This document shows positions 23,724-44,293 of a stretch of 44,293 bases of DNA, in pieces. A model generated the notes under the pieces. It searched no databases and had not been told where the DNA came from. It saw only the letters and a program-made list of their open reading frames with translations. Each line of letters opens with the position of its first letter. The stretch's first letter is position 1. The position numbers and the translations under genes were made by a program. Source of the DNA: an uncultured Methylococcales bacterium (lineage in GTDB: Bacteria; Pseudomonadota; Gammaproteobacteria; Methylococcales; Methylomonadaceae); contig CAIUVX010000121.1 of NCBI GenBank assembly GCA_903902705.1, positions 1 through 44,293 on the forward strand, read 5' to 3'.

Positions 23724-23742
23724 ATCAATGGAAAAAACGACT

Positions 23743-24522
23743 ATGACAGCATTCCTTTACACATGGAATCCAGAAGATTGGCATTGGAGCGACCAACAAG
23801 ACGCAATTTATCGAGTCAATAATAACAAGGTCTATGATACAGAATGGAGCTGTGGTAACAGAAAACATATTGAAATAGGCGACCTATTTTTTCTAATGCG
23901 TGTGGGTGTTGAACCTAAGGGGATTATTGGTTGTGGCTATGCTTCTTCTCAGCCCTATTTGTTACCTCATTGGAAGAAAGAAAAAGCCGATGAAGGTAAA
24001 TTCGCCTTAAGAACAGACGTGCTTTTTAAAGCCCTATCTGACAAACCTATTTTTTCTCTGCCTTACCTTCAGAATAATCATCCGATTTCTTACGGCTGGA
24101 TACCAAGGTCGGGCGGTGTATTAATTCCAGAAGACATTGCCACTGAACTTTTTTCAAGCATACAGCAAAAATTTAACTTTATCCCTGCAACACAAGAAGA
24201 AATACGGCTTTACTCTGAGGGGAAAGTTAAAAAAGTAACGCTAAAAACATACGATAGAAGTACAGCGGCTCGCCAAGCGTGCATAGAACATCATGGTTAT
24301 AACTGCGCTGTTTGCGGCTTCAAATTTGAAACTGTTTATGGCTCACTTGGTAAAAACTACATTGAAGTTCATCATTTAAAACAACTTGCTAATATTGGCG
24401 AAGAACACCAAATTGACCCAATCAAGGACTTAAAACCAGTGTGTGCTAATTGTCATCGAATGTTACATAAAGAACGCCCACCTCTTTCAATTGAAGAGCT
24501 TCAAAAAAGAATACAAAATTAA
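23743..24522 (+). CDS. EVE-like/HNH endonuclease
   Basis: A nuclease of 259 residues, taking ATG 23743 as the start because the earlier ATG at 23728 directly abuts a hairpin. The N-terminal half (FLYTWNPEDWHW, WSCGNRKHIEIGDLFFLMRVG, GIIGCGYASSQPY) resembles EVE/PUA-type domains that recognise modified bases. The C-terminal half is an HNH domain: CAVC at 188-191, YIEVHHLKQL with His210-His211, and CANCH at 234-238, typical of McrA/5mC-targeting and Septu-like nucleases. This points to cleavage of modified or foreign DNA. It is 18 bases upstream of the ATPase gene in the same orientation, and the three genes form a likely operon. Confidence 0.8.
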   Translation: MTAFLYTWNPEDWHWSDQQDAIYRVNNNKVYDTEWSCGNRKHIEIGDLFFLMRVGVEPKGIIGCGYASSQPYLLPHWKKEKADEGKFALRTDVLFKALSDKPIFSLPYLQNNHPISYGWIPRSGGVLIPEDIATELFSSIQQKFNFIPATQEEIRLYSEGKVKKVTLKTYDRSTAARQACIEHHGYNCAVCGFKFETVYGSLGKNYIEVHHLKQLANIGEEHQIDPIKDLKPVCANCHRMLHKERPPLSIEELQKRIQN

Positions 24523-24540
24523 TCACAAGACGATATTATC

Positions 24541-25842
24541 ATGCACTATTTTTACGACTTTAAAGGGTTTAAAAAAACAAAAATTGATTTAATGCGTCCT
24601 ATGACTTTGTTAATTGGGCGTAATGGTTCAGGTAAGACAAATGTTATTGAGGGTGTGGAATTATTAGCACAATTGGCGAGTGGGCGACCTTTATATGAAA
24701 TTAGCGATATAGGGCGTGGTAGTGGAAGCACCTTTGAAATTCGTGGTGGATTACAAGGGTGCATGAGGAAAAATAGCAATCAACAAAACTCTTTTGGTCT
24801 AGGTTTTAATGCTATTTATGTTAAACATAATCAACCCATTAATTATAATATTAGCGTTTCTTTCACAGGGCAACTTAACATTTACTTTGAGCGATTAATA
24901 CTTGATGAAAGAGTTTATTTTGAAGCTAATCAATTAGAAGATGTTTTAAATGTTAGCTATGATAATTTCTCCAGAGGACGTAATAAACCTACTTTAAAAC
25001 TATCTACTGACCGTTCGATTTTGTCGCGCTACAATCCTACCGTTACCACGCAGCTTTACGATAAAAAAGTTAAAGATAATGCTATTCGTGAAGCAATAGA
25101 GCTTACCGATATAGTTAAATCGCACTTAATGTCTGCTTTTGTCTTTGACCTTCATCCTCATCTCATGCGTCAATACGAAAGAATAGGATCGAGTCAATTA
25201 AACAAAGACGGTTCAAACCTTTCCGCTGTATTATATGGTATTAAAATCAAGGATGAAACTATTGAAGAATCACAACGGTTATTACCAAAATTATTGAATA
25301 AATTAAAACAATTACCCGAAGAACCGTTTATTGATTTTGAATTTATTACTACCGTAGCCGATGACGTTTTATTGGGATTAAAACGCGAAGATGAGGCAAT
25401 TATTGATGCGCGGTTATTATCTGATGGTACGTTACGCGCTTTGGCGATATTAACGGCATTAGAAACTATATCAGAACATTCAAGAATGGTAATTGAAGAA
25501 TTAGATAATGGAGTACATCCATCACGGGTTAAATTGTTAGTTGATACTATTTGGGAATGCAGCCATAGACGTAATTTGAATGTTTTAGTTACGACTCATA
25601 ATCCAGCGACATTAAATGGTTTAACACCTGAGCAATTAGATTGTGTGGTAGTTTGTCATTATGACCCAATTGAAAAAGCCGATAAATTAACCGCATTACC
25701 CGATATTCCCTATTCAGACGTATTATTACAAAAAGGTTCATTAGGTGATTTAGTCACTCGCAATGTATTAGAAAGTTATTTAATGCCTAATTTTGAAGCC
25801 GAACAACAACGCAAAGCGCAAGAGTTATTGGATTTATTCTAA
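24541..25842 (+). CDS. OLD/AAA_21-type ATPase, candidate defence protein
   Basis: A 433-residue ABC-like ATPase. The P-loop GRNGSGKT is at 26-33. An ABC-like signature LLSDGTLRALAIL lies near 293-305, followed by the Walker B/D-loop segment VIEELDNGVHPSR near 317-329 and the switch VLVTTHNPATLNG. This is the AAA_15/AAA_21 architecture seen in OLD, RloA and PARIS AriA proteins, but there is no C-terminal TOPRIM domain. Such ATPases commonly sense phage and control a toxic partner. Its TAA overlaps the ATG of the PIN-like gene by one base, so the nuclease is its probable effector. An HNH gene precedes it. Confidence 0.8.
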   Translation: MHYFYDFKGFKKTKIDLMRPMTLLIGRNGSGKTNVIEGVELLAQLASGRPLYEISDIGRGSGSTFEIRGGLQGCMRKNSNQQNSFGLGFNAIYVKHNQPINYNISVSFTGQLNIYFERLILDERVYFEANQLEDVLNVSYDNFSRGRNKPTLKLSTDRSILSRYNPTVTTQLYDKKVKDNAIREAIELTDIVKSHLMSAFVFDLHPHLMRQYERIGSSQLNKDGSNLSAVLYGIKIKDETIEESQRLLPKLLNKLKQLPEEPFIDFEFITTVADDVLLGLKREDEAIIDARLLSDGTLRALAILTALETISEHSRMVIEELDNGVHPSRVKLLVDTIWECSHRRNLNVLVTTHNPATLNGLTPEQLDCVVVCHYDPIEKADKLTALPDIPYSDVLLQKGSLGDLVTRNVLESYLMPNFEAEQQRKAQELLDLF

Positions 25843-26357
25843 TGATTACTTATATTGTTGTTGATACGGGTTATTTAGTAGAGCTATTTAAAATTCCAAA
25901 GCACTTTACAGAAGAAGATTCAAAAGAAATTAAACGTAGGCTAGAAATAGCAATTAAAGAGAAATGCAGGTTATATATTCCTACGCCTGTCGTATTTGAA
26001 TTAGCTAATCATATTGCTCATGTTGATGATGGTAATATACGACGAGAGTTAGTTAATAAGTTTTCTACAATTATAAATAACTGCCTAGACGATAAAGTTA
26101 CGCTTTTTAATATAGTTCCATTTGATAACTCTGCGGTTGTTAAAGAATTAAGTAATAATTTAAAAGACTTTGTACAGAAATTCGCCGATGATTTTGCTAG
26201 GCAAGGTTTAGGTTTTACTGATTCAGCCGTTTTATTAGAAGCCAAAAGTCTAAAAAATAAAAATAACTGTGTTCATATTTGGACGACAGACGAACCACTA
26301 AAACCTTATGAACCAGATACTGAGCTAAATCCATTTATAGGTTCTCGGAAGAAATAA
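25842..26357 (+). CDS. PIN-like nuclease coupled to ATPase
   Basis: A 171-residue protein that I read as a PIN-fold RNase-like domain. The acidic residues are spaced as in PIN nucleases: Asp8 in IVVDTGYLVEL, Glu53 in PVVFELANHI, Asp127 in GFTDSAVLLEA and Asp150 in IWTTDEPL. The T-D-x-x-L after a strand is the usual last motif. The start overlaps the ATPase stop (TAATG), which implies fixed stoichiometry. In ATPase-effector systems the nuclease is usually held inactive until infection. The match is by motif only; a full fold assignment would need a profile search. The gene ends beside an integrase remnant on the other strand. Confidence 0.65.
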   Translation: MITYIVVDTGYLVELFKIPKHFTEEDSKEIKRRLEIAIKEKCRLYIPTPVVFELANHIAHVDDGNIRRELVNKFSTIINNCLDDKVTLFNIVPFDNSAVVKELSNNLKDFVQKFADDFARQGLGFTDSAVLLEAKSLKNKNNCVHIWTTDEPLKPYEPDTELNPFIGSRKK

Positions 26358-35341: not shown

Positions 35342-38248
35342 TTAATCTCCATTGCTCATTAAGTCAGATATTGGCGGACAAGTGCAAACCAGATGTCTAT
35401 CACCATAGACGTTATCAATACGTCCGACGGGAGGCCAATATTTATCCTCGTGTTGGTTGTTATCAGGAAAGAAGGCTTGTTGTCTGGAATAGGGCAATGT
35501 CCATTCATCTAATAATAACTGGTGAGTATGGGGGGCATTGTGCAGCAAATTATTTTTAGCGGCAGCTTCATCTGTTGCAATCGCTTTGATTTCCTGACGA
35601 ATAGCAATGAGTGCGTCACAAAAACGGTCAATTTCAGTTTTGCTCTCACTTTCGGTGGGTTCTATCATCAATGTGTCGGCAACGGGGAATGACACAGTGG
35701 GCGCGTGAAAACCATAGTCAATCAGCCGTTTGGCAATATCTTCTACCGTGATATTGCAGGTTTTTTTAAAGTCATGACAATCGATAATACATTCATGCGC
35801 GACCCAGCCATTTTTGCCTGTGTATAAAATTGGGTAATACGGCGTGAGGCGTTTGGCGATGTAGTTGGCATTTAAAATAGCGGTGAGCGTGGCGCGTTTT
35901 AAACCTGCCGCACCCATCATGGCAATGTATGCCCACGAAATGCTGTATAAACTGGCTGAACCCCACGGTGCGGCGGCGATTGTGCCTATCGTGCCGTGTT
36001 CACTTTTAGCGGGATTCACGCCTTCAACCACAGGATGTTCAGGTAAAAAAGCCGCAAGATGTGCGCCCACACCAATAGGGCCAACACCTGGCCCGCCGCC
36101 ACCGTGTGGAATACAGAAGGTTTTATGCAGATTAAGATGTGCAACATCCGCGCCGATGTTGCCAACGCGACTGAGTCCAACCAGCGCGTTAAAATTCGCG
36201 CCATCCAAATAAACCTGCCCGCCGTGTTGGTGTATCAAGTCACAAATTTCACAAAAACCTTCTTCATAAACACCATGTGTGGAAGGATAAGTAATCATGA
36301 GCGCGGCTAGCGTATCGTGATATTCACTGACTTTGGCGCGTAAATCATCCAAGCTAATATTGCCATTGTCATCACAGGCAACCACCACCACTTTAAGCCC
36401 TGCCAAGCTGGCACTGGCGGGATTAGTACCGTGCGCGGAGGCTGGGATTAAACAAATATCGCGTTGCTCCTGTCCGTTAACCTCATGATATTTACGAATA
36501 ACTAACAGCCCTGTGTATTCGCCTTGTGAGCCTGCATTGGGCTGTAACGAAAACGCATCAAAGCCCGTCAAATCGCAGAGCATATCTTCTAATTCAGTGA
36601 ATAGCTGTTGATAACCTAGCGTTTGATACAGTGGAGCGAAAGGGTGTAAGCCGTTAAATTCATGATAGGACATCGCCTGCATTTCAGTTGCGGCGTTGAG
36701 TTTCATGGTGCATGAACCTAAGGGAATCATGGCGCGGTCAAGGGCTATATCGCGGCGGGCGAGTCTGCACATATAACGCATCATTTCAGTTTCTGAATGA
36801 TAACGCTCAAATACAGGATGTTGCAGGATAGCATCATCACGCAATAAAGCATCAGGAATGCACTCAACTAGACTGGCATTCAGTGTGTTAATATCGGGGG
36901 AATTCGCCGCCACCGCTGCGAATACTTGCCAGACGGCGCGTAACTGCGAGCGCGTAGTGGTTTCATCTAAGGAAAGTCCGATGTGATTAGCGTCAATAAT
37001 GCGCAGATTAATAGCCGCTTCATTCGCTCGTGCGGCAATGCGTTTGGCACGGTTCGGGGTATGAATCACCAGCGTATCAAAATAACACTGGCTAACCACG
37101 CAATGCCCTAACTGGGTTAGACCTGCGGCGAGAATTTGTGTGTATCTATGCACCCGCCCTGCAATTAAACGCAAACCTTCTGCACCGTGATACACCGCAT
37201 AAAAGCCCGCGATAATTGCAAGCAGAACTTGCGCCGTGCAGATATTGCTGGTGGCTTTATCGCGGCGTATATGTTGTTCGCGGGTTTGTAATGCCATACG
37301 CAAGGCGATTTGTCCGTGCTTATCTTTAGAAACGCCAATAATACGACCAGGAACAGAGCGTTTGTATTCATCCTTAGTGGCGAAAAATGCCGCATGAGGG
37401 CCACCATAACCCATAGGCACACCAAACCGCTGGGAGTTTCCCACCACAATATCCACACCAAACGCAGCAGGGGGTTTCAATAAAACTAAGCTTAATAAAT
37501 CAGCGGCAACGGTGACTAAGGCTGATTTACTGTGGGCAATCGTGGTAATGTCGCTAAGGTCTTTTATTTCACCTTTAGAATTTGGATACTGCACTAATAA
37601 GGCAAAAAAATCCTGTGCGTCCAAGTTCTGATAAACATCGGTAACAATAACTTCATAACCCAAGGAATGAGCGCGGGTTTTAACCACCGCGATAGTTTGC
37701 GGGTGACACTCACTGTCCACCACAATGCAATTGCTGGTGCTGGTGGATAAACGCCGCGACATGGTCATGGCTTCTGCTGCCGCTGTCGCTTCATCCAGCA
37801 AAGACGCATTCGCCAATTCCATGCCTGTTAAATCAATCACCATTTGCTGAAAATTTAACAACGCTTCCAGCCGCCCTTGACTGACTTCGGCTTGATAAGG
37901 CGTGTAAGCCGTGTACCACGCGGGATTTTCCAACACATTACGTTTAACCACTGCGGGCATAAAAGTATCGTAATAACCCATGCCTATCATGGAAGTAAAA
38001 ACTTTATTACGGCTACGCATTTTGCGCAGGAGTTTAATTACCGCCTGTTCACTCATGGTTTCCGTGAGTTTTAACGGTTCGTGATTCAAAATGTTAGCAG
38101 GAATGGCTTGCTCGATAATATCTTCTAATTCAGTCAAGCCCAATTCGGCTAACATCTCCTTAATTTGTTGGGCATTAGAGCCAATATGACGGTCGATAAA
38201 ATTACCGCGCATTTCCAATTGAGTCAAACTAGGGTGAGAAGTTGGCAT
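35342..38248 (-). CDS. gcvP: Glycine dehydrogenase (decarboxylating), P protein
   Basis: The single-chain P protein of the glycine cleavage system, 968 residues. ATG 38248 ([17 protein letters not shown]) has AGAGGT upstream and is chosen over the longer frame to 38296. [17 protein letters not shown] opens the family domain. The PLP-binding Lys709 lies in [33 protein letters not shown] and [15 protein letters not shown] are strongly conserved. gcvT and gcvH are not in view. Its upstream leader is partly repeated at the right edge of the window next to a broken gcvP start. cobQ follows after 2 bases, so gcvP and the cobalamin genes share a transcript. Confidence 0.95.
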
Positions 38249-38296
38249 GGTGATTACCTCTGATAACGATGGGGGAATAAAGGGCAAGCGCGTCAC
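38210..38296 (-). repeat. gcvP leader and start, copy 1 of a diverged duplication
   Basis: This stretch spans the first 13 codons of gcvP, its ribosome-binding site and about 48 upstream bases. By hand alignment it is about 80% identical, with one single-base gap, to 44198-44283 in the same orientation. The upstream block GCCCTTTATTCCCC (minus strand) is fully kept in both, which suggests a conserved regulatory or attachment sequence. Confidence 0.7.
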
Positions 38297-38522
38297 GGTG
38301 ACGACACAATTTGTTCGCGAACGGCGGCGTATAACCTGTTGCCGATGTTTGCCGAATCACTATTAAGCAGTCATCCAAAAATTGTTCAACCTTTTTCAAG
38401 AATTGTGATGACATAAGTTTTGCCAATATTGGATAGAATATCAAATAGATTATGCTTTAAAGATTGAAAAGAGGGTTAGTTGAATCCACACTTTTTTTAA
38501 AAAAACTTTTGAGCGATTACGT

Positions 38523-38598
38523 TAGGGTGTGCTGAGATACAAACGCACTCGTTCGAGTTGCTGCAAATGATGCGCCTCCTATCGTCGGCACATCCTAT
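38523..38598. repeat. ATAGGATGTGC-type palindromic repeat, copy 1
   Basis: TAGGGTGTGCTGAG at the left and GCACATCCTA at the right are near-inverted ends, with AATGATGCGCCTCCTATCGT inside. The same element, better preserved, is at 44108-44188. Its size (about 76-81 bases), inverted ends and intergenic site fit a miniature palindromic element. Confidence 0.7.
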
Positions 38599-38654
38599 AG
38601 TTCTGTTTCTATGTTAAAGTTTTGGCTAGTCCTGTAATGCGAGTGATGAAAATA

Positions 38655-38724
38655 CCGTTCGCCCTGAGCTTGTCGAAGGGTGAACGTCAATCCGCTCATG
38701 GTTCGACAAGCTCACCACGAACGG
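38655..38724. repeat. Dispersed TTCGACAAGC repeat, copy 2
   Basis: It is bounded by CCGTTCG and CGAACGG and contains CTGAGCTTGTCGAAGGGTGAA and GGTTCGACAAGCTCACCACG. It can fold into a long hairpin. The copy at 32447-32517 shares the same order of parts, and 9745-9920 holds degenerate pieces. Confidence 0.7.
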
Positions 38725-38790
38725 TTTGACTTAGCCAATAAGGACTACCAAGTTTTGTTCCCCAATTTATAGACAGAAACAAGGAAAACT

Positions 38791-39756
38791 ATGTGTTATG
38801 ACATCATCGGTGATATTCACGGACAAGCGGACAAACTTGTCAATTTATTGGAAAAAATGGGTTATACCTTACACGGTAAAGTCTGGACGCATTCTTCACG
38901 GCAAGTTATTTTTGTAGGTGATTTCATTGATAGAGGACTCCAGCAGTTAGCCACAGTAGAGATTGCGCGTAGCATGGTGGAAGCGGGAACTGCGTTAGCG
39001 ATATTAGGTAATCACGAGCTGAATGCGATTGCATGGTTTATGCCACATCCTGAACAAGTAGGCGAGTATTTACGCCCACATCCACCCTATAAAAATGGTG
39101 ATAAAAATCACCACCAGCATGAGGTGTTTTTGAATGAAGTCGAACACTTGCCAGAGACACATAAAGACATCATTGATTGGTTTTTAACCTTACCACTTTG
39201 GCTTGATCTGCCTGATATTCGCGTGGTACACGCCTGTTGGCATTCGCAATTTATAGACTTTCTAAAACCCTCTCTGAATGCCGATAACTCTATTCCACCA
39301 TCATTAATGCGGAAAGCCACCCGTGAGCCAGACAATTTGGCAGAAAAAGACACTGCGAATCCGTCGATATTCAAAGCAGTAGAGGCAATTTGTAAAGGTA
39401 TCGAAATACCCTTACCACAAGGACATTCGTTTACTGACAAGGACGGCACTAAAAGGCATAGAGTGCGTGTACGTTGGTGGGATACATCAGCAACCACCTA
39501 CCGTCAGGCAGCCATGCTTTCCGAAAGAGAACGAGAGCATCTTCCCGATTTACCGATTCCAGAACACGCACGTCTAAATTACCCACTCGATAAACCGTTA
39601 TTTTTTGGTCATTACTGGATGACGGGGACACCGACTGTGCTTTCCGATAAAGTGGCTTGTGTCGATTACAGCGCGGGTAATGGTGGTTCATTAGTTGCCT
39701 ATCGTTGGGATGGCGAAACCACACTTGATAATGCCAAGTTTATTTGCTCAACGTAA
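38791..39756 (+). CDS. PPP-family metallophosphoesterase
   Basis: A 321-residue calcineurin-like phosphoesterase. The metal motifs are GDIHG at 7-11, GDFIDRG near 48-54 and GNHE near 78-81, with later His residues in VVHACWHSQF and LFFGHYWM. The GDIHG / GDxxDRG / GNHE set defines the PPP family (bacterial protein phosphatases, ApaH/PrpE-like diadenosine tetraphosphatases). The substrate is not identifiable. Nothing upstream or downstream links it to an operon: it lies between repeats and hicB. The protein has no signal peptide. Confidence 0.85.
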   Translation: MCYDIIGDIHGQADKLVNLLEKMGYTLHGKVWTHSSRQVIFVGDFIDRGLQQLATVEIARSMVEAGTALAILGNHELNAIAWFMPHPEQVGEYLRPHPPYKNGDKNHHQHEVFLNEVEHLPETHKDIIDWFLTLPLWLDLPDIRVVHACWHSQFIDFLKPSLNADNSIPPSLMRKATREPDNLAEKDTANPSIFKAVEAICKGIEIPLPQGHSFTDKDGTKRHRVRVRWWDTSATTYRQAAMLSEREREHLPDLPIPEHARLNYPLDKPLFFGHYWMTGTPTVLSDKVACVDYSAGNGGSLVAYRWDGETTLDNAKFICST

Positions 39757-39821
39757 TGCTGAATTTTTTCTGGTGTCATACTGACGCGGGTGATTTGGAT
39801 ATTTGATAGAAGGTAAAAAAT

Positions 39822-40025
39822 ATGAAATTAAAAGTTATTATTCATCCTGCTGAAGAAGGCGAGTTTTGGGCAGAAGTCCCTGCTATTCAAGGGTGTGCAA
39901 CGCAAGGCGAGACTATTGAAGAGCTTTTAACCAACCTCTATGAAGCGGTTGAAGCCTGTCTTTCTGTGGACTTGGAAGACATTGAACTGGCGCAAAATGA
40001 CAGGGTTTTGGAGATTGCGGTGTGA
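39822..40025 (+). CDS. hicB: HicB-like antitoxin
   Basis: A 67-residue protein starting MKLKVIIHPAEEGEFWAEVP, then GCATQGETIEELLTNLYEAVEA. This is the HicB beta-sheet/helix pattern that binds and blocks HicA toxins (the 'y.a.vPelpGc.tqGdt.eEal.n..eai' motif). There is no separate DNA-binding domain, as in short HicB forms. AAGGTAAAAAAT precedes the ATG. Its TGA overlaps the GTG start of hicA (GTGA). The order hicB before hicA is less common than the reverse. Confidence 0.85.
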   Translation: MKLKVIIHPAEEGEFWAEVPAIQGCATQGETIEELLTNLYEAVEACLSVDLEDIELAQNDRVLEIAV

Positions 40026-40226
40026 AATCTGTTTCAGGAAAACACGTTGCCCGAATTCTGGAAAGTCACGGCTGGGTTTTAGTGCGGGTCAATGGCAGTC
40101 ACCACGTCTATACGCAGTCTGGAAATCCTGCCCGTATTTCCCTGCCTATCCATAAAAATGAAGATTTGATGTGGCTTGCTTAAGCATTTTATGAAAGTGG
40201 CAGGCATTACTGAAACTGAACTGTAA
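40022..40226 (+). pseudogene. hicA: HicA-like toxin, frameshifted
   Basis: From GTG 40022 the frame reads KSVSGKHVARILESHGWVLV, then NGSHHVYTQ with the catalytic His, and ARISLPIHKNEDL, a clear HicA mRNA interferase. It then hits TAA at 40181 after 53 residues. In another frame the family's C-terminus continues (GLLKHFMKVAGITETEL) to TAA 40224-40226, so about two bases are missing, or one extra is present, near 40168-40172. The conserved His and fold core precede the break, so weak activity cannot be excluded, but the last helix is lost. hicB overlaps it by 4 bases. Confidence 0.75.
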
Positions 40227-40252
40227 GATAACAGTTTGCCGAAAATAGTTTC

Positions 40253-40341
40253 GTAGCAGCCCGCATGGAGCTTTGCGGAATGCGGGAATAACAACGTAAT
40301 TCACAAATACCCCGTATTCCGTTGCACTCCATACGCGCTAC
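40253..40341. repeat. Dispersed GTAGC...GCTAC palindromic element
   Basis: The left part GTAGCAGCCCGCATGGAG...GCGGAATGCGGG and the right part CCCCGTATTCCGTTGCACTCC...GCGCTAC are imperfect inverted copies, able to form a long hairpin. It lies 27 bases after the hicA remnant and looks like a known style of intergenic repeat. No copy elsewhere in this window was found. Confidence 0.55.
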
Positions 40342-40367
40342 TTGCTGACTTTTAACCAATTCATTAT

Positions 40368-40507
40368 CGTTCCAACGCTCCGCGTTGGAATGTGTCTGAG
40401 GACGCTCCAGCGTCCTCGTTTCAGTCTATGTTTTATTGATAGTTACGATTTAACAATGAAGACGCTGGAGCGTCAACCGAAGTATTCCAACGCAGAGCGT
40501 TGGAACG
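40368..40507. repeat. Nested palindrome block upstream of ABC-3C operon
   Basis: Four perfect palindromes occur within 140 bases: TTCCAACGC/GCGTTGGAA around TCC, GAGGACGCT/AGCGTCCTC around CC, GACGCT/AGCGTC around GG, and TTCCAACGC/GCGTTGGAA around AGA. The outer pairs CGTTCCAACGC and GCGTTGGAACG are also inverted with respect to each other, so the block can fold on two levels. It has the look of a miniature palindromic transposable element and sits about 150 bases before the ABC-3C operon. Confidence 0.65.
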
Positions 40508-40654
40508 ATTAAAATAAGCGTACCCTACGCGGCTTACAAAGTTTGCGTAACAGTCAGTCACGCAGTGCGTGTCATCGTTGCGTGATAACATATAGCATAA
40601 TAACAATTAGCCAAGCTCAATTAAATTGGTTACGCTTTTTATGGGAAAACTGGA

Positions 40655-41590
40655 ATGATTAAAACTAAATATGGCAACTTTGATGGTAATAAATGGGAAG
40701 CAGTTTGCCAAGTTTGTTTTAAGCATAAATATGAAGAGGATAGTTATCAAGAAATAAAAGCCTCGCCTGGCGATTATGGAATTGAAGGATTTACTCGAAA
40801 AGGTGATGCTTTTCAGTGTTACTGTCCAGATAAAGAATATACACAAGATGAATTGCACAATAAGATTCGAGATAAAATAACAAAGGATTTAAAAAAACTT
40901 GTAACGTATCAAAAGGAACTTGAATTGAAGCTCAATGGTACAAAAATAAAACGTTGGATATTCGTAACTCCACGTTATGAGCATAATAAGATAATTGACC
41001 ATTGTGCAACAAAATCTCAGGAATATAGAAAGTTAGGATTAGATATACTCGATAGTCGATTTGATGTATTAATTTATGATGTCGATTTTTACTCTGAATA
41101 TCTGCATATCGCGTTAAATTCAATTGGTGAAAAATTATATATCGAAGCGGATGTAAAAACAGATAATGATGATATTGAAGATTTCAAAAATTTAGGATCT
41201 TATCAAGCTACCAATATCATTAATAAATCGATTTCAATTATTGAAAATTCAGCATCTGGCTCTAGTTCAGCAAAATCAGATATGTTAGCTAAAAATTATT
41301 TAAGACAATATTTAAATGGATACTCTGTCGTTAGAACATTAGAAAAAAGTTATGGAAAATCTTACGAAAGATATTTAAGGAATATTGATGAAATGGCAGA
41401 AGAACTAGAACAGAAAAAGATTTTTCATGACTCTTCAAATAAAGAGTTTGTGGAAAAAATAACTTTGGAGGTTACTCAAAGAATAAATAATGAATTTAGT
41501 GAATTAGAGCAAACAACAAAAAACCGCCTATCTTATTATGCGGTTGCATTATGGTTAGCAGATTGTCCGTTAAGGTTTGATGATTTATGA
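40655..41590 (+). CDS. ABC-3C system: restriction-nuclease-like effector component
   Basis: A 311-residue protein, first gene of an AT-rich operon. Its N-terminus reads WEAVCQVCF, ASPGDYGIEGFTRKG and AFQCYCPD, placed like the E / D-G-I-D-G / Q-x-K blocks of Mrr-like PD-(D/E)xK nucleases. However, the final Lys of the last block is Tyr56 (Q-C-Y), so the nuclease site may be altered or inactive. The rest is helical with an RTLEKSYGKSYERYLRN segment and no named domain. Its TGA overlaps the next gene's ATG (ATGA). The nuclease-like first gene plus middle component plus RecN-like ATPase order is that of ABC-three-component systems predicted in phage conflict. Confidence 0.6.
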   Translation: MIKTKYGNFDGNKWEAVCQVCFKHKYEEDSYQEIKASPGDYGIEGFTRKGDAFQCYCPDKEYTQDELHNKIRDKITKDLKKLVTYQKELELKLNGTKIKRWIFVTPRYEHNKIIDHCATKSQEYRKLGLDILDSRFDVLIYDVDFYSEYLHIALNSIGEKLYIEADVKTDNDDIEDFKNLGSYQATNIINKSISIIENSASGSSSAKSDMLAKNYLRQYLNGYSVVRTLEKSYGKSYERYLRNIDEMAEELEQKKIFHDSSNKEFVEKITLEVTQRINNEFSELEQTTKNRLSYYAVALWLADCPLRFDDL

Positions 41591-42033
41591 AATTTATTAA
41601 AAAACCTATTGCTTTACCTTCTAATTACCGATTTTTCTACCAAATATCAATTTTATTGTTAATCCTAAATCTGTGTAGTACAAAAAATACAGGAGCATCG
41701 ACTCTTAAACTTCAACTTTTAGCTTGGGCATTACGAGATGATGAAGGTTGTGAATCTTTAATGAAGATTACAAAACTAAAAGATGCAAAACATAATTTTA
41801 ATTTTTGGGCTTTAGACCCAGCTTTGAATAGAGCAATTGAGTTTGCTTTAGCTGATGGTTTTTTAAAACTAAAAAAAGAAAAGCTTATCTCTACACCAAA
41901 GGGGGATATTTTTCTTAGTTACATATTGGAAACAAATGATATATTCACTCATGAAAAAGAAATACTTAGAAACTTTGAAAAATCGGTTACAGAAACTTTT
42001 GTAAATACAGTGCTGAAAAATGAAAATGCTTAA
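41587..42033 (+). CDS. ABC-3C system: middle component
   Basis: A 148-residue protein between the nuclease-like gene and the ATPase. It overlaps both neighbours (4 and 14 bases). The pattern KLQLLAWALRDDEG, FWALDPALNRAIEFALADGFL and KKEKLISTPKGDIFLSYIL is like a winged-helix adaptor: a helix-turn-helix followed by a short 'K...l..T.kG..fl' wing, as in the middle components of ABC-3C operons. It probably bridges the ATPase and the effector. No catalytic motif is visible. Identification depends on the neighbours and on overlap-coupled translation. Confidence 0.6.
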   Translation: MKFIKKPIALPSNYRFFYQISILLLILNLCSTKNTGASTLKLQLLAWALRDDEGCESLMKITKLKDAKHNFNFWALDPALNRAIEFALADGFLKLKKEKLISTPKGDIFLSYILETNDIFTHEKEILRNFEKSVTETFVNTVLKNENA

Positions 42034-44062
42034 TATCACTGCAATTCGTATCACAACTTATACTGCACAAGAACCTTTTGTGTTTGAAGCAACTTTTAAA
42101 GAAAAGTTAAATATCATTAGAGGTGATAATGCAAAAGGAAAAAGTACATTAGTACAATCTGTTTTTTATGTTCTTGGACAAGAAGAATTGCTCGGTGGTA
42201 AAAATTCTAAGGTAATACAAAGCTGTTTAAAAACACATATTAGAGATGATAATGATAATGGAATAACTGCATTAGGTTCCTCAATAGAGTTGCAAATTTT
42301 TAATGGCATTAATGAAGTTACATTAAAAAGATGTGCTAATTTGAAAGGAGTAGACGATAGACTAATTGAAATCACATTTGGGGCAGAACTCTCCAACAAA
42401 GGTTCTTCTTTCAAAAAGGAATCAATGTATATTCACGATGCTGGTGGAGCAACGAATTCATATCATGGTTTTCATAAATGGCTTGAAGAATATCTTGGAT
42501 GGGAGCTACCCTTAGTATCATCAGCAAGCGATAAAGAAATAAAACTGTATAGCCAGCTAGTATTCCCTGCGTTTCTTATAGAGCAGAAAGCGGGGTGGTC
42601 AAATTATCTAGCAACTAGCCCTTATTTTGGTGTAAAAGAATCAAAAAAAAGGGCGATAGAATTTTTATTAAATCTTGATGTTTCTCAAAATGAAAAAGCT
42701 AAAAGACAGAGTGAGGCAAAATTAGATACATACAAAAGGGAATGGCAGGCTAAGTATGAAGAAATGGAGAGGTTAATATCATCTGACTTTGTTGTTATTA
42801 CTGGAGTTAAACGTTATCCTCATGTCGATTTCGACTCAAATAATAGTAATTTAGTATTTGAAAAAGGTACTAATTACTGTAATTTAATGGATTATATTAA
42901 TATACTTGAACAAGATTTAAAAAATAAATCAGCAATTAAAATTCCAACTAATAATGAAGTAAATGCAGAATTAAGTAGGAAATTGGAAGAATTGATGTTT
43001 GAGATTCAAAATATGACTGATGAAGAAGATAAGCTAAGAAATTTTTTATCTATAGAACACGCCCAAAGAAAGGAAGTTAATGAGAGTCTAAAAGAAATAG
43101 ATAAAGAAATTGATAAAAACTATGGTGCATTAAAAGTTAAAAAATTTGGTGCATCTCATGATTCTATATTAGCATCAGATAATTGTCCAACGTGCCATCA
43201 AGAAATAAAAGATGCTTTGCTTCCTGTTGATATTAATGCAATGCCAATGAGTATTGAAGATAATGTTAAATATTTAAATGGACAACAGAAAATATTTAAA
43301 TCATATAGTATGAGTTGTTTTAAAACAATTATGAATATAAGTAGTGATTTAACCCGCAATAAAATATTACAAGAGTCAATAAGAGAAAGTATTAAGGCTA
43401 TTAGGATTCAACTAATAGCCGACCCTAGACTACCTTCTATTATTGATGTAAGAGAACAGATTAAAATTGAAGATGATGTAAAAAGATTTAGAGGGTTTAT
43501 AAAATTCTTCAATAAATCGATAGATGAATTTTCTGCTATAAATAATAATTATAAACTAGCACTTGAAGAAAAGAAAAATTTACCACAAAATGGTCTGTCT
43601 CAAAATGACAAGGGAAAACTTACTGAATTTACAGAGATATTTAAGGACTTGTTACGAAAATTTAAGTTCCAAAGTTGCAATATAAATTTTATAAAGATTT
43701 CCGAGGAAACCTATTTTCCAATTATTGATTCAAGTGAATTATTGAATGAAACTCTTCGCAATGATTCATCTGGAAGTGATTTTACCCGCGTAATGTGGGC
43801 ATATACTTTAGGATTATATTTAGTAAGCAATAAACATAAAGCTAACCACCCTTCATTTTTATTTTTAGATGAACCATCACAGCATTCAATATCAAATGAA
43901 AGTTCTTGGCAATTATTTGATTCTCTCAGTAAAGAGTCCTGTCAAACTATTATCGCGGATTCATTTAACAATAGTAACCAAGTTTTTGAAGAATCAACTA
44001 AGAATATAGATTTTCATTTGATTAAATTTGAAGGGCGATTGCTAAAAAGAAAAGCGGTGTAA
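42020..44062 (+). CDS. ABC-3C system: RecN/Rad50-like ABC ATPase with zinc hook
   Basis: A 680-residue ATPase. The P-loop GDNAKGKST is at 35-43. A long coiled-coil middle holds a Rad50-type zinc-hook Cys-x-x-Cys (CPTCH, Cys389 and Cys392). The C-terminal ATPase half has a degenerate ABC signature (SSGSDFTRVMWAYTLGL, near 580-596), the Walker B/D-loop FLFLDEPSQHSI near 613-624 and TIIADSFNN. It resembles DUF3732-type ATPases of ABC-3C operons. Such proteins probably bind DNA ends or unusual DNA and gate the effector. The start overlaps the middle component. Base composition is clearly more A+T-rich than nearby core genes, which suggests horizontal transfer. Confidence 0.75.
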   Translation: MKMLNITAIRITTYTAQEPFVFEATFKEKLNIIRGDNAKGKSTLVQSVFYVLGQEELLGGKNSKVIQSCLKTHIRDDNDNGITALGSSIELQIFNGINEVTLKRCANLKGVDDRLIEITFGAELSNKGSSFKKESMYIHDAGGATNSYHGFHKWLEEYLGWELPLVSSASDKEIKLYSQLVFPAFLIEQKAGWSNYLATSPYFGVKESKKRAIEFLLNLDVSQNEKAKRQSEAKLDTYKREWQAKYEEMERLISSDFVVITGVKRYPHVDFDSNNSNLVFEKGTNYCNLMDYINILEQDLKNKSAIKIPTNNEVNAELSRKLEELMFEIQNMTDEEDKLRNFLSIEHAQRKEVNESLKEIDKEIDKNYGALKVKKFGASHDSILASDNCPTCHQEIKDALLPVDINAMPMSIEDNVKYLNGQQKIFKSYSMSCFKTIMNISSDLTRNKILQESIRESIKAIRIQLIADPRLPSIIDVREQIKIEDDVKRFRGFIKFFNKSIDEFSAINNNYKLALEEKKNLPQNGLSQNDKGKLTEFTEIFKDLLRKFKFQSCNINFIKISEETYFPIIDSSELLNETLRNDSSGSDFTRVMWAYTLGLYLVSNKHKANHPSFLFLDEPSQHSISNESSWQLFDSLSKESCQTIIADSFNNSNQVFEESTKNIDFHLIKFEGRLLKRKAV

Positions 44063-44102
44063 CGCGATAAGGTGCGCCATCGGGTAACGCGATAAGGTGC
44101 GC
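44060..44102 (+). repeat. 18-bp direct repeat after the ABC-3C operon
   Basis: TAACGCGATAAGGTGCGC occurs at 44060-44077 and again at 44085-44102, a 25-base period. The first copy overlaps the ATPase stop codon. Two copies are too few for a CRISPR array. It may be a junction of the inserted operon with repeat DNA. Confidence 0.7.
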
Positions 44103-44107
44103 TAACC

Positions 44108-44188
44108 ATAGGATGTGCTGAGGTACGAAGCGCGTCGTTCGAGAAAATCCACGCGAATGATGCGCCTCCTATCGTCGGCACATCCTAT
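44108..44188. repeat. ATAGGATGTGC-type palindromic repeat, copy 2
   Basis: ATAGGATGTGC and GCACATCCTAT are perfect 11-bp inverted ends of an 81-base element. The inside (CTGAGGTACGAAGCGCGTCG, AATGATGCGCCTCC) matches 38523-38598. It ends 10 bases from the broken gcvP start and may have inserted into that gene copy. Confidence 0.75.
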
Positions 44189-44197
44189 GACACTGCA

Positions 44198-44293
44198 CAT
44201 TTCCAGTTGATTCAAGCTAGGGCTAGTGTTTGACATGATGTCTACCTTTGGTAGCGATGGGGAATAAAGGGCAATCGCGTCACAAGTAACGGC
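44198..44293 (-). pseudogene. gcvP 5'-end remnant with leader (diverged second copy)
   Basis: On the minus strand ATG 44236 opens SNTSPSLNQLEM, which aligns with the real gcvP start ([12 protein letters not shown]). About 47 bases upstream (GCCCTTTATTCCCC, TGACGCG) are also shared, through 44283. The similarity stops after the 13th codon, next to the ATAGGATGTGC repeat, so no P protein can be made. The divergence (about 20%) shows it is not a recent copy. The sequence continues past the window edge. Confidence 0.6.

What the first reader, a model, noticed from the sequence alone, without database searches (positions are those of the whole stretch)
40655..44062. A three-gene ABC-3C-type conflict operon in an AT-rich island
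Seen: three genes overlap by 4 and 14 bases. The last encodes a P-loop ATPase with a Rad50-type Cys-x-x-Cys hook, the middle a wHTH-like small protein, and the first has restriction-nuclease-like blocks. Known: ABC-three-component systems, predicted by comparative genomics, pair exactly these parts. Inferred: this is a defence operon. Its base composition differs from the core genes and it is flanked by palindromic elements and a displaced gcvP start.
Basis: partly seen in the sequence, partly recalled or inferred. Interest (0 to 1): 0.8.

Follow-up and report, generated by a model that had tools for sequence, protein, structure and literature searches.

The report
Lamassu anti-phage operon with variant effector
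Three overlapping genes form a Lamassu-type bacterial immune system, a DNA-sensing ATPase thought to switch on a DNA-cutting partner, and it belongs to a branch whose cutter and ATPase both differ from the usual type at their active sites.

Summary
The three ORFs are real, with overlaps of 4 and 14 nt. They form a complete Lamassu (LmuA-LmuC-LmuB) operon: PADLOC LmuA 1.7e-28, LmuC 4.8e-18, LmuB 5.5e-92. Of 46 related loci examined, 42 hold all three genes in the same order on one strand; one is cut by its contig end and three hold only the nuclease domain, in other systems. The operon belongs to a distinct branch. All 34 LmuAs aligned have Q-x-Y where 12 of 12 canonical LmuAs have Q-x-K. All 30 LmuBs aligned keep the Walker B catalytic Glu, which is Ser/Thr in the 12 canonical partners. 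The 'displaced gcvP start' is real: about 6 kb of cargo splits gcvT from gcvP between two partial copies of their junction. Three of seven same-genus relatives have no insert, one has other cargo and three were unresolved. The palindromes are genome-wide repeats. It is a known kind of system; the paired active-site differences deserve a test.

The parts
40655..41590 (+). LmuA effector, predicted PD-(D/E)XK-like nuclease of a Q-x-Y type (E15, D40, E44, Q54, Y56; K74, D78, K81 in the next helix) with a helical C-terminal domain
   Evidence: PADLOC PDLC03852 1.7e-28; residue counts in 34 sequences; AlphaFold2 model pLDDT 91.6
41587..42033 (+). LmuC middle component, winged-helix-like small protein
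   Evidence: PADLOC PDLC03871 4.8e-18; model pLDDT 87.6; best Foldseek neighbours are wHTH regulators, not significant
42020..44062 (+). LmuB Rad50/SMC-like ATPase sensor with zinc hook C389-P-T-C392 and complete Walker B D617-E618
   Evidence: PADLOC PDLC03863 5.5e-92, profile positions 3-603 of 610; residues invariant in 30 of 30 aligned LmuBs
39822..40183 (+). HicB-like / HicA-like toxin-antitoxin pair upstream of the operon (39822-40025 and 40022-40183)
   Evidence: Pfam UPF0150 7.2e-7 and HicA_toxin 2.4e-11
38791..39756 (+). calcineurin-like phosphoesterase, passenger of the same cargo region
   Evidence: Pfam PF00149 8.7e-11; a 92% copy in sister genome G403 at a place without gcvP in the 10 kb fetched
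40366..40509 (.). 144-nt imperfect palindrome, member of a genome-wide repeat family
   Evidence: I1; 53 match rows in the own genome, both strands
44063..44200 (.). REP-like repeat at the right edge of the cargo; a related copy lies at 38513-38598 at the left edge
   Evidence: 70 match rows in the own genome, both strands; D1/D2
38204..38369 (-). gcvP 5' end plus a remnant of the gcvT 3' end: left partial copy of the gcvT-gcvP junction
   Evidence: 81% match to contig C93:40-205; junction alignment; gcvP TIGR00461
44192..44293 (-). remnant of the gcvP 5' end plus the gcvT 3' end: right partial copy of the junction, continued on contig C93, which holds the rest of gcvT
   Evidence: exact 141-nt overlap of the window end with C93; gcvT ORF at C93:90-1154, TIGR00528 and Pfam GCV_T

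Best explanation
This is a complete Lamassu (ABC-3C / DdmABC-type) immune operon. Inferred mechanism: two LmuB chains pair through the CPTC zinc hook and scan DNA, with LmuC bridging and LmuA held inactive in the complex. Abnormal DNA made by an invader (ends or hairpins) is bound with ATP, LmuA is released, assembles and cuts DNA, and the cell dies or the invader is lost. Shown here: family membership of all three proteins, operon conservation and conserved active-site residues. Inferred from work on relatives: sensing, release and abortive outcome. Specific to this branch, and inferred from residues only: LmuB keeps the catalytic Glu, so it can probably hydrolyse ATP and reset, and LmuA uses Q-x-Y, probably with a lysine supplied from the following helix (K81, or K74).
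For: PADLOC matches for all three proteins, full length for LmuB. Order A-C-B on one strand in 42 of 46 related loci: 15 of 18 from 13 of 22 matching plasmid records plus genomes of the phylum, and 27 of 28 viral-contig loci; the misses are one locus cut by its contig end and three with the nuclease domain in other systems. P-loop, hook and Walker B residues invariant in 30 of 30 aligned LmuBs; Q54, Y56, D78 and K81 in 34 of 34 aligned LmuAs; the rows left out of those alignments agree where read (27 of 27 viral LmuAs Q-x-Y, DEPxQ in all 28 viral LmuB loci). Patchy spread: at E <= 1e-20 ORF3 matches 1 of 41 genomes, only the own one. In L061 the trio lies between a P2-like replication nickase and a portal gene. 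Defence genes lie near it in some relatives: BrxL, type I restriction, AbiE. Behaviour of relatives: PMC10586767 section 8, and passages of PMC12409362 and PMC12904381.
Against: I saw no activity test of this operon or this branch in the listings. The LmuA model has no significant structural match: best E 0.24, and unrelated proteins rank among the nuclease entries; which domain of those entries is matched was not checked. The profile comparison with canonical LmuA is weak (P 0.0044, probability 8, 46 columns). Pfam and NCBIfam give nothing above their cut-offs for any of the three. The review says LmuB generally carries a Walker B Glu-to-Gln change, which this branch does not. In the closest relative (Priestia), D40 and K74 are both replaced. 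In 6 of 43 loci LmuB is split over two or more frames.
Confidence: 0.87

Rival explanations
1. ORF3 is an ordinary chromosomal RecN/SMC/Rad50 repair ATPase, and the two small genes are unrelated neighbours.
For: Weak SMC_N (2.8e-4), Rad50 (2.5e-6) and RecF (4.5e-4) matches; the ORF3 profile matches solved Rad50 chains weakly (best 1.6e-5).
Against: Full-length LmuB match at 5.5e-92; the same two neighbours in the same order in 42 of 43 loci with such an LmuB; no match at E <= 1e-20 in the 40 relatives searched, unlike a repair gene.
Confidence: 0.02
2. The operon is a Lamassu, but its effector does not cut double-stranded DNA: the Q-x-Y site makes LmuA a nickase, an RNase or another phosphodiesterase.
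For: Q-x-Y in 34 of 34 aligned branch members against Q-x-K in 12 of 12 canonical ones; no significant fold match to a nuclease.
Against: The other motif positions line up with the canonical nuclease core, though weakly; invariant K81, and K74 in 33 of 34, follow at once and could replace the missing lysine; the first Foldseek ranks, none significant, include DUF4297-HerA, Cap4, Avs4 and EcoO109I entries.
Confidence: 0.2
3. The operon is a silent or decayed passenger of a genomic cargo site and no longer defends.
For: Very low GC (0.296) and a variable cargo site; LmuB is split in 6 of 43 related loci.
Against: All three frames are open and overlap, and the conserved active-site residues are intact here.
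Confidence: 0.1

Closest known systems
Lamassu type II / DdmABC
   Same: Three genes in the order effector, small middle protein, hooked Rad50-like ATPase; PADLOC LmuA, LmuC and LmuB profiles match.
   Different: LmuB keeps the Walker B Glu (30 of 30 aligned) that is described as generally Gln; the effector is of Q-x-Y type.
Canonical LmuA/LmuB pairs of the same PADLOC LmuA profile (12 loci, L039-L050)
   Same: Same LmuA profile PDLC03852 and a hooked LmuB.
   Different: LmuB tree splits 12 against 30 with 100/100 support, with a long-branch warning; Q-x-K effector in 12 of 12; Ser/Thr at the Glu position in 12 of 12.
ABC-3C systems (comparative-genomics prediction, cited through PMC10586767)
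   Same: Effector, middle component and ABC ATPase in one operon; counted in the same superfamily.
   Different: Nothing found here separates them; the original ABC-3C paper was not held.
Priestia megaterium plasmid operon (L023, NZ_CP085436.1)
   Same: Best-scoring plasmid relative: LmuA 37%, LmuB 35% identity, same order; sister in the tree, 97/92; its LmuB also matches PDLC03863 best.
   Different: Lacks D40 and K74 in LmuA.
PDC-M68 and iHD-CE / Hsp90-associated proteins
   Same: Use the same Q-x-Y nuclease domain (L038, L051, L052).
   Different: Different sensor parts: another SMC-like ATPase, or a long protein with iHD-CE and wHTH-HSP90_Na-assoc domains.

Membership tests
Lamassu superfamily | LmuB: small Rad50/SMC-like ATPase | tested here: met
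   PDLC03863 5.5e-92, profile positions 3-603 of 610; 680 aa
Lamassu superfamily | LmuA effector gene in the same operon | tested here: met
   PDLC03852 1.7e-28; first gene in 42 of 43 loci with such an LmuB, the other cut by its contig end
Lamassu superfamily | LmuC middle component (three-gene type) | tested here: met
   PDLC03871 4.8e-18
Lamassu superfamily | Zinc hook CPxC (many but not all members) | tested here: met
   C389, P390, C392 in 30 of 30 aligned; metal binding not tested
Lamassu superfamily | Walker B Glu-to-Gln change (described as general, not defining) | tested here: not met
   D617-E618 in 30 of 30 aligned; canonical partners here have Ser/Thr in 12 of 12
Lamassu superfamily | Anti-phage or anti-plasmid activity | not testable with these tools
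   needs a challenge assay
Cap4-type (Q-x-K) nuclease | Q-x-K catalytic lysine (motif as recalled and as seen in the 12 canonical LmuAs) | tested here: not met
   Q54-x-Y56 in 34 of 34 aligned; so it is called Cap4-like, not Cap4
Cap4-type (Q-x-K) nuclease | PD-(D/E)XK fold | tested here: inconclusive
   The model is confident, but the best Foldseek E is 0.24, with DUF4297-HerA and Cap4 entries ranked first and unrelated proteins among them
Chromosomal RecN/SMC/Rad50 | Best and full-length match to repair ATPase models | tested here: not met
   Only weak partial matches
DUF3732 (Pfam PF12532) | Score at or above the gathering cut-off | tested here: not met
   18.2 bits against 25

The most novel reading that the evidence does not exclude
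This operon represents a mechanistically separate Lamassu branch in which two active sites differ together. The ATPase hydrolyses ATP, so sensing is reversible and can be proof-read instead of locking once. The effector is a Q-x-Y nuclease whose catalytic lysine has moved to the next helix. That effector domain is shared with at least two other conflict systems (PDC-M68 and iHD-CE/Hsp90-associated proteins), so it would be an interchangeable effector class of its own.
Probability: 0.35. Interest if true: 0.55.

Novelty: new member of a known kind. Interest (0 to 1): 0.33.

Why it matters
The LmuB of Vibrio Lamassu is suggested to hydrolyse ATP poorly or not at all, so that activation would be one-way (PMC10586767). 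A branch that kept the catalytic Glu in all 30 LmuBs aligned, with a differently built nuclease, is a natural comparison for asking whether ATP hydrolysis resets the sensor and protects the host. It also suggests that the Lamassu effector core tolerates, or has re-invented, a different active site. The gcvT-gcvP junction is a small example of a cargo site that carries different genes in sister genomes.

Tried and rejected
Rejected: an ordinary repair ATPase; palindromes as parts of the operon, since they are genome-wide repeats; filing the effector as a true Cap4 nuclease, since Q-x-K is not met.

Led nowhere: the genome-contig search with ORF3 alone found no relative; ORF3 against the phage records found none at E <= 1e-5. 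Solved-structure searches by sequence gave no match for ORF3 alone, one chance match (Kap123, E 0.73) for ORF1 alone, weak Rad50 and Lamassu LmuB hits for the ORF3 profile (9ux7, E 0.0039) and nothing convincing for the ORF1 profile. Foldseek gave no significant match for LmuA or LmuC.

Rows dropped before the residue counts: 9 of 27 viral LmuAs (L057, L062, L063, L064, L067, L071 and L080 are identical to kept rows; L074 and L077 are 84% and 89% identical to kept rows); for LmuB, 12 of 28 viral loci (copies and near relatives of kept rows, and L053, L077, L079, L080 with split genes) and 2 of 15 other loci (L024 and L034, split). All 27 viral LmuAs read Q-x-Y and all 28 viral LmuB loci hold a DEPxQ.

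Literature: searches. I saw no paper in those listings on the Q-x-Y effector or on a Glu-retaining LmuB, but the ABC-3C paper and one primary Lamassu structure paper that I asked for are not held, so this is no claim that they do not report it. Papers seen: PMC10586767 (passages and section 8), PMC12409362 (passages), PMC12904381 (passages); all others by search listing only.
Full report
What is there. Three ORFs at 40655-41590, 41587-42033 and 42020-44062 (+) overlap by 4 and 14 nt. Their GC is 0.296 against 0.424 for the rest of the window; in a scan in 100-nt steps this is the lowest 3.4-kb stretch. Pfam and NCBIfam give no match above their cut-offs. PADLOC identifies all three as one system: LmuA PDLC03852 1.7e-28, LmuC PDLC03871 4.8e-18, LmuB PDLC03863 5.5e-92.

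Is the trio real as a unit? ORF1 found 22 plasmid records by tblastn; 13 were fetched. A search of 398 genomes of the phylum with the LmuA profile gave 18 matches at E <= 1e-8: the own genome, 12 canonical, 2 with this kind of operon, 2 long fused proteins and 1 beside another ATPase. A profile search of viral contigs with the LmuB alignment gave 28 loci. Of the 18 loci with an ORF1-family match outside the viral set, 15 hold all three genes and 3 (L038, L051, L052) hold only the nuclease domain. Of the 28 viral loci, 27 hold all three; L068 holds C and B and is cut by its contig end. In all 42 complete loci the order is A-C-B on one strand. LmuB is split into pieces in 6 of the 43 loci that hold it: L024, L034, L053, L077, L079 and L080. 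ORF3 has no match at E <= 1e-20 in the 40 relatives searched, which fits horizontal spread. In L061 the trio sits between a P2-like replication nickase and the portal gene; that P2-like phages carry defence genes at such a place is recalled, not from a call.

What distinguishes the branch. Aligned LmuAs (34 distinct) have W14, G39, G42, Q54, Y56, D78, K81, K191, W300 and C304 in all; K74 and D40 in 33, the exception for both being the Priestia protein; E15 in 29; E or D at 44 in all. The 12 canonical LmuAs with the same PADLOC profile all read Q-x-K (10, L011 and L015). Aligned LmuBs of the branch (30) keep G40 K41 S42, C389 P390 C392, S586 D587 R590 and D617 E618 P619 Q621 in all, while the 12 canonical LmuBs have Ser or Thr at the Glu position. 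The rows left out of these alignments were read as well: 27 of 27 viral LmuAs are Q-x-Y and all 28 viral LmuB loci hold a DEPxQ. The LmuB tree separates 12 canonical from 30 branch members with 100/100 support, and puts ORF3 beside the Priestia plasmid protein (97/92); the program warns of long branches between the two groups. The review says a Glu-to-Gln change is general in LmuB, so retention of Glu departs from the usual description, although not from a defining feature. The branch is already covered by PADLOC profile PDLC03863, the best match of ORF3 and of the three relatives scanned, so the branch is catalogued; I did not find its residue differences described.

Structures. The LmuA model is confident (pLDDT 91.6, pTM 0.79): helix 11-25, strand 51-55 carrying Q-x-Y, then helix 64-84 carrying K74, D78 and K81. 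Foldseek finds nothing significant (best E 0.24); the first ranks include DUF4297-HerA, Cap4, Avs4 and EcoO109I entries, with unrelated proteins among them, and the matched domains were not checked. A profile comparison aligned W14-E15, G39-D40, G42/E44 and Q54 with the canonical core over 46 columns at P 0.0044 and low probability. LmuC models as a winged-helix-like protein (pLDDT 87.6) with DtxR/MarR-type regulators as best but non-significant neighbours.

How it probably works. From work on relatives: LmuB is thought to sense DNA ends or hairpins; LmuA is then released, assembles into a tetramer and cuts DNA, with abortive infection (passages of PMC12409362 and PMC12904381). I infer the same here, with an ATPase that can probably hydrolyse ATP and a nuclease whose lysine is supplied from the next helix. 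None of these steps was tested.

Surroundings. Upstream lie a HicB/HicA-like pair and a calcineurin-like phosphoesterase. The phosphoesterase region has a 92% copy in G403 and a partial 91% copy in G399, each at a place without gcvP in the stretch fetched. The window's right end overlaps contig C93 exactly over 141 nt, and C93 holds gcvT; gcvP at 35342-38296 is intact in length (TIGR00461). In G398, G399 and G400 gcvT and gcvP are adjacent; in G000 and G404 they are split between two partial copies of the junction. In G404 the cargo is a hybrid histidine kinase and a response regulator with a GGDEF domain. The other three same-genus genomes searched (G401, G402, G403) were not resolved. The palindromic repeats at 40366-40509 and 44063-44200 are members of genome-wide families.

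A second AT-rich locus in the window, 23728-26357, matches the PADLOC candidate PDC-M07 (A 6.6e-97, B 1.4e-44) beside an HNH gene. The Q-x-Y nuclease domain also occurs at the N-terminus of two proteins of 1260 and 1128 residues with iHD-CE and wHTH-HSP90_Na-assoc domains (L051, L052) and in a protein that matches PDC-M68A (L038).

Verdict. Ordinary in kind, a Lamassu operon, correctly spotted. The coupled active-site differences of its branch are the part that deserves an experiment.

Noticed in passing
window 23728-26357: Second low-GC (0.35) gene group: HNH endonuclease (PF01844), AAA ATPase matching PDC-M07A (6.6e-97) and PIN-like protein matching PDC-M07B (1.4e-44), a candidate defence system.
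   Followed up: partly
window 38204-44293 and L101, L102, L104, L105, L106: The gcvT-gcvP junction is a variable cargo site: no insert in G398, G399 and G400, a histidine kinase and a GGDEF response regulator in G404, Lamassu plus HicAB plus phosphoesterase here, between two roughly 165-nt partial copies of the junction.
   Followed up: yes
L051 1498-5280, L052 3332-6718: The same Q-x-Y nuclease domain heads two very long proteins with iHD-CE and wHTH-HSP90_Na-assoc domains.
   Followed up: partly
L038 2448-5424: A Q-C-Y nuclease beside a different SMC-like ATPase, PADLOC candidate PDC-M68.
   Followed up: partly
L061 2169-9362: The trio lies between a P2-like replication nickase and a portal gene; in L055 tail and tape-measure genes lie near it.
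   Followed up: partly
L023 4992-5927: The best-scoring plasmid LmuA (Priestia) lacks both D40 and K74, while its LmuC and LmuB frames are open; TIR-domain genes lie beside it.
   Followed up: no
window 40366-40509: A 144-nt palindrome of a genome-wide family ends 145 nt upstream of a system whose relatives are reported to react to palindromic DNA; how the host genome avoids setting it off is open.
   Followed up: no
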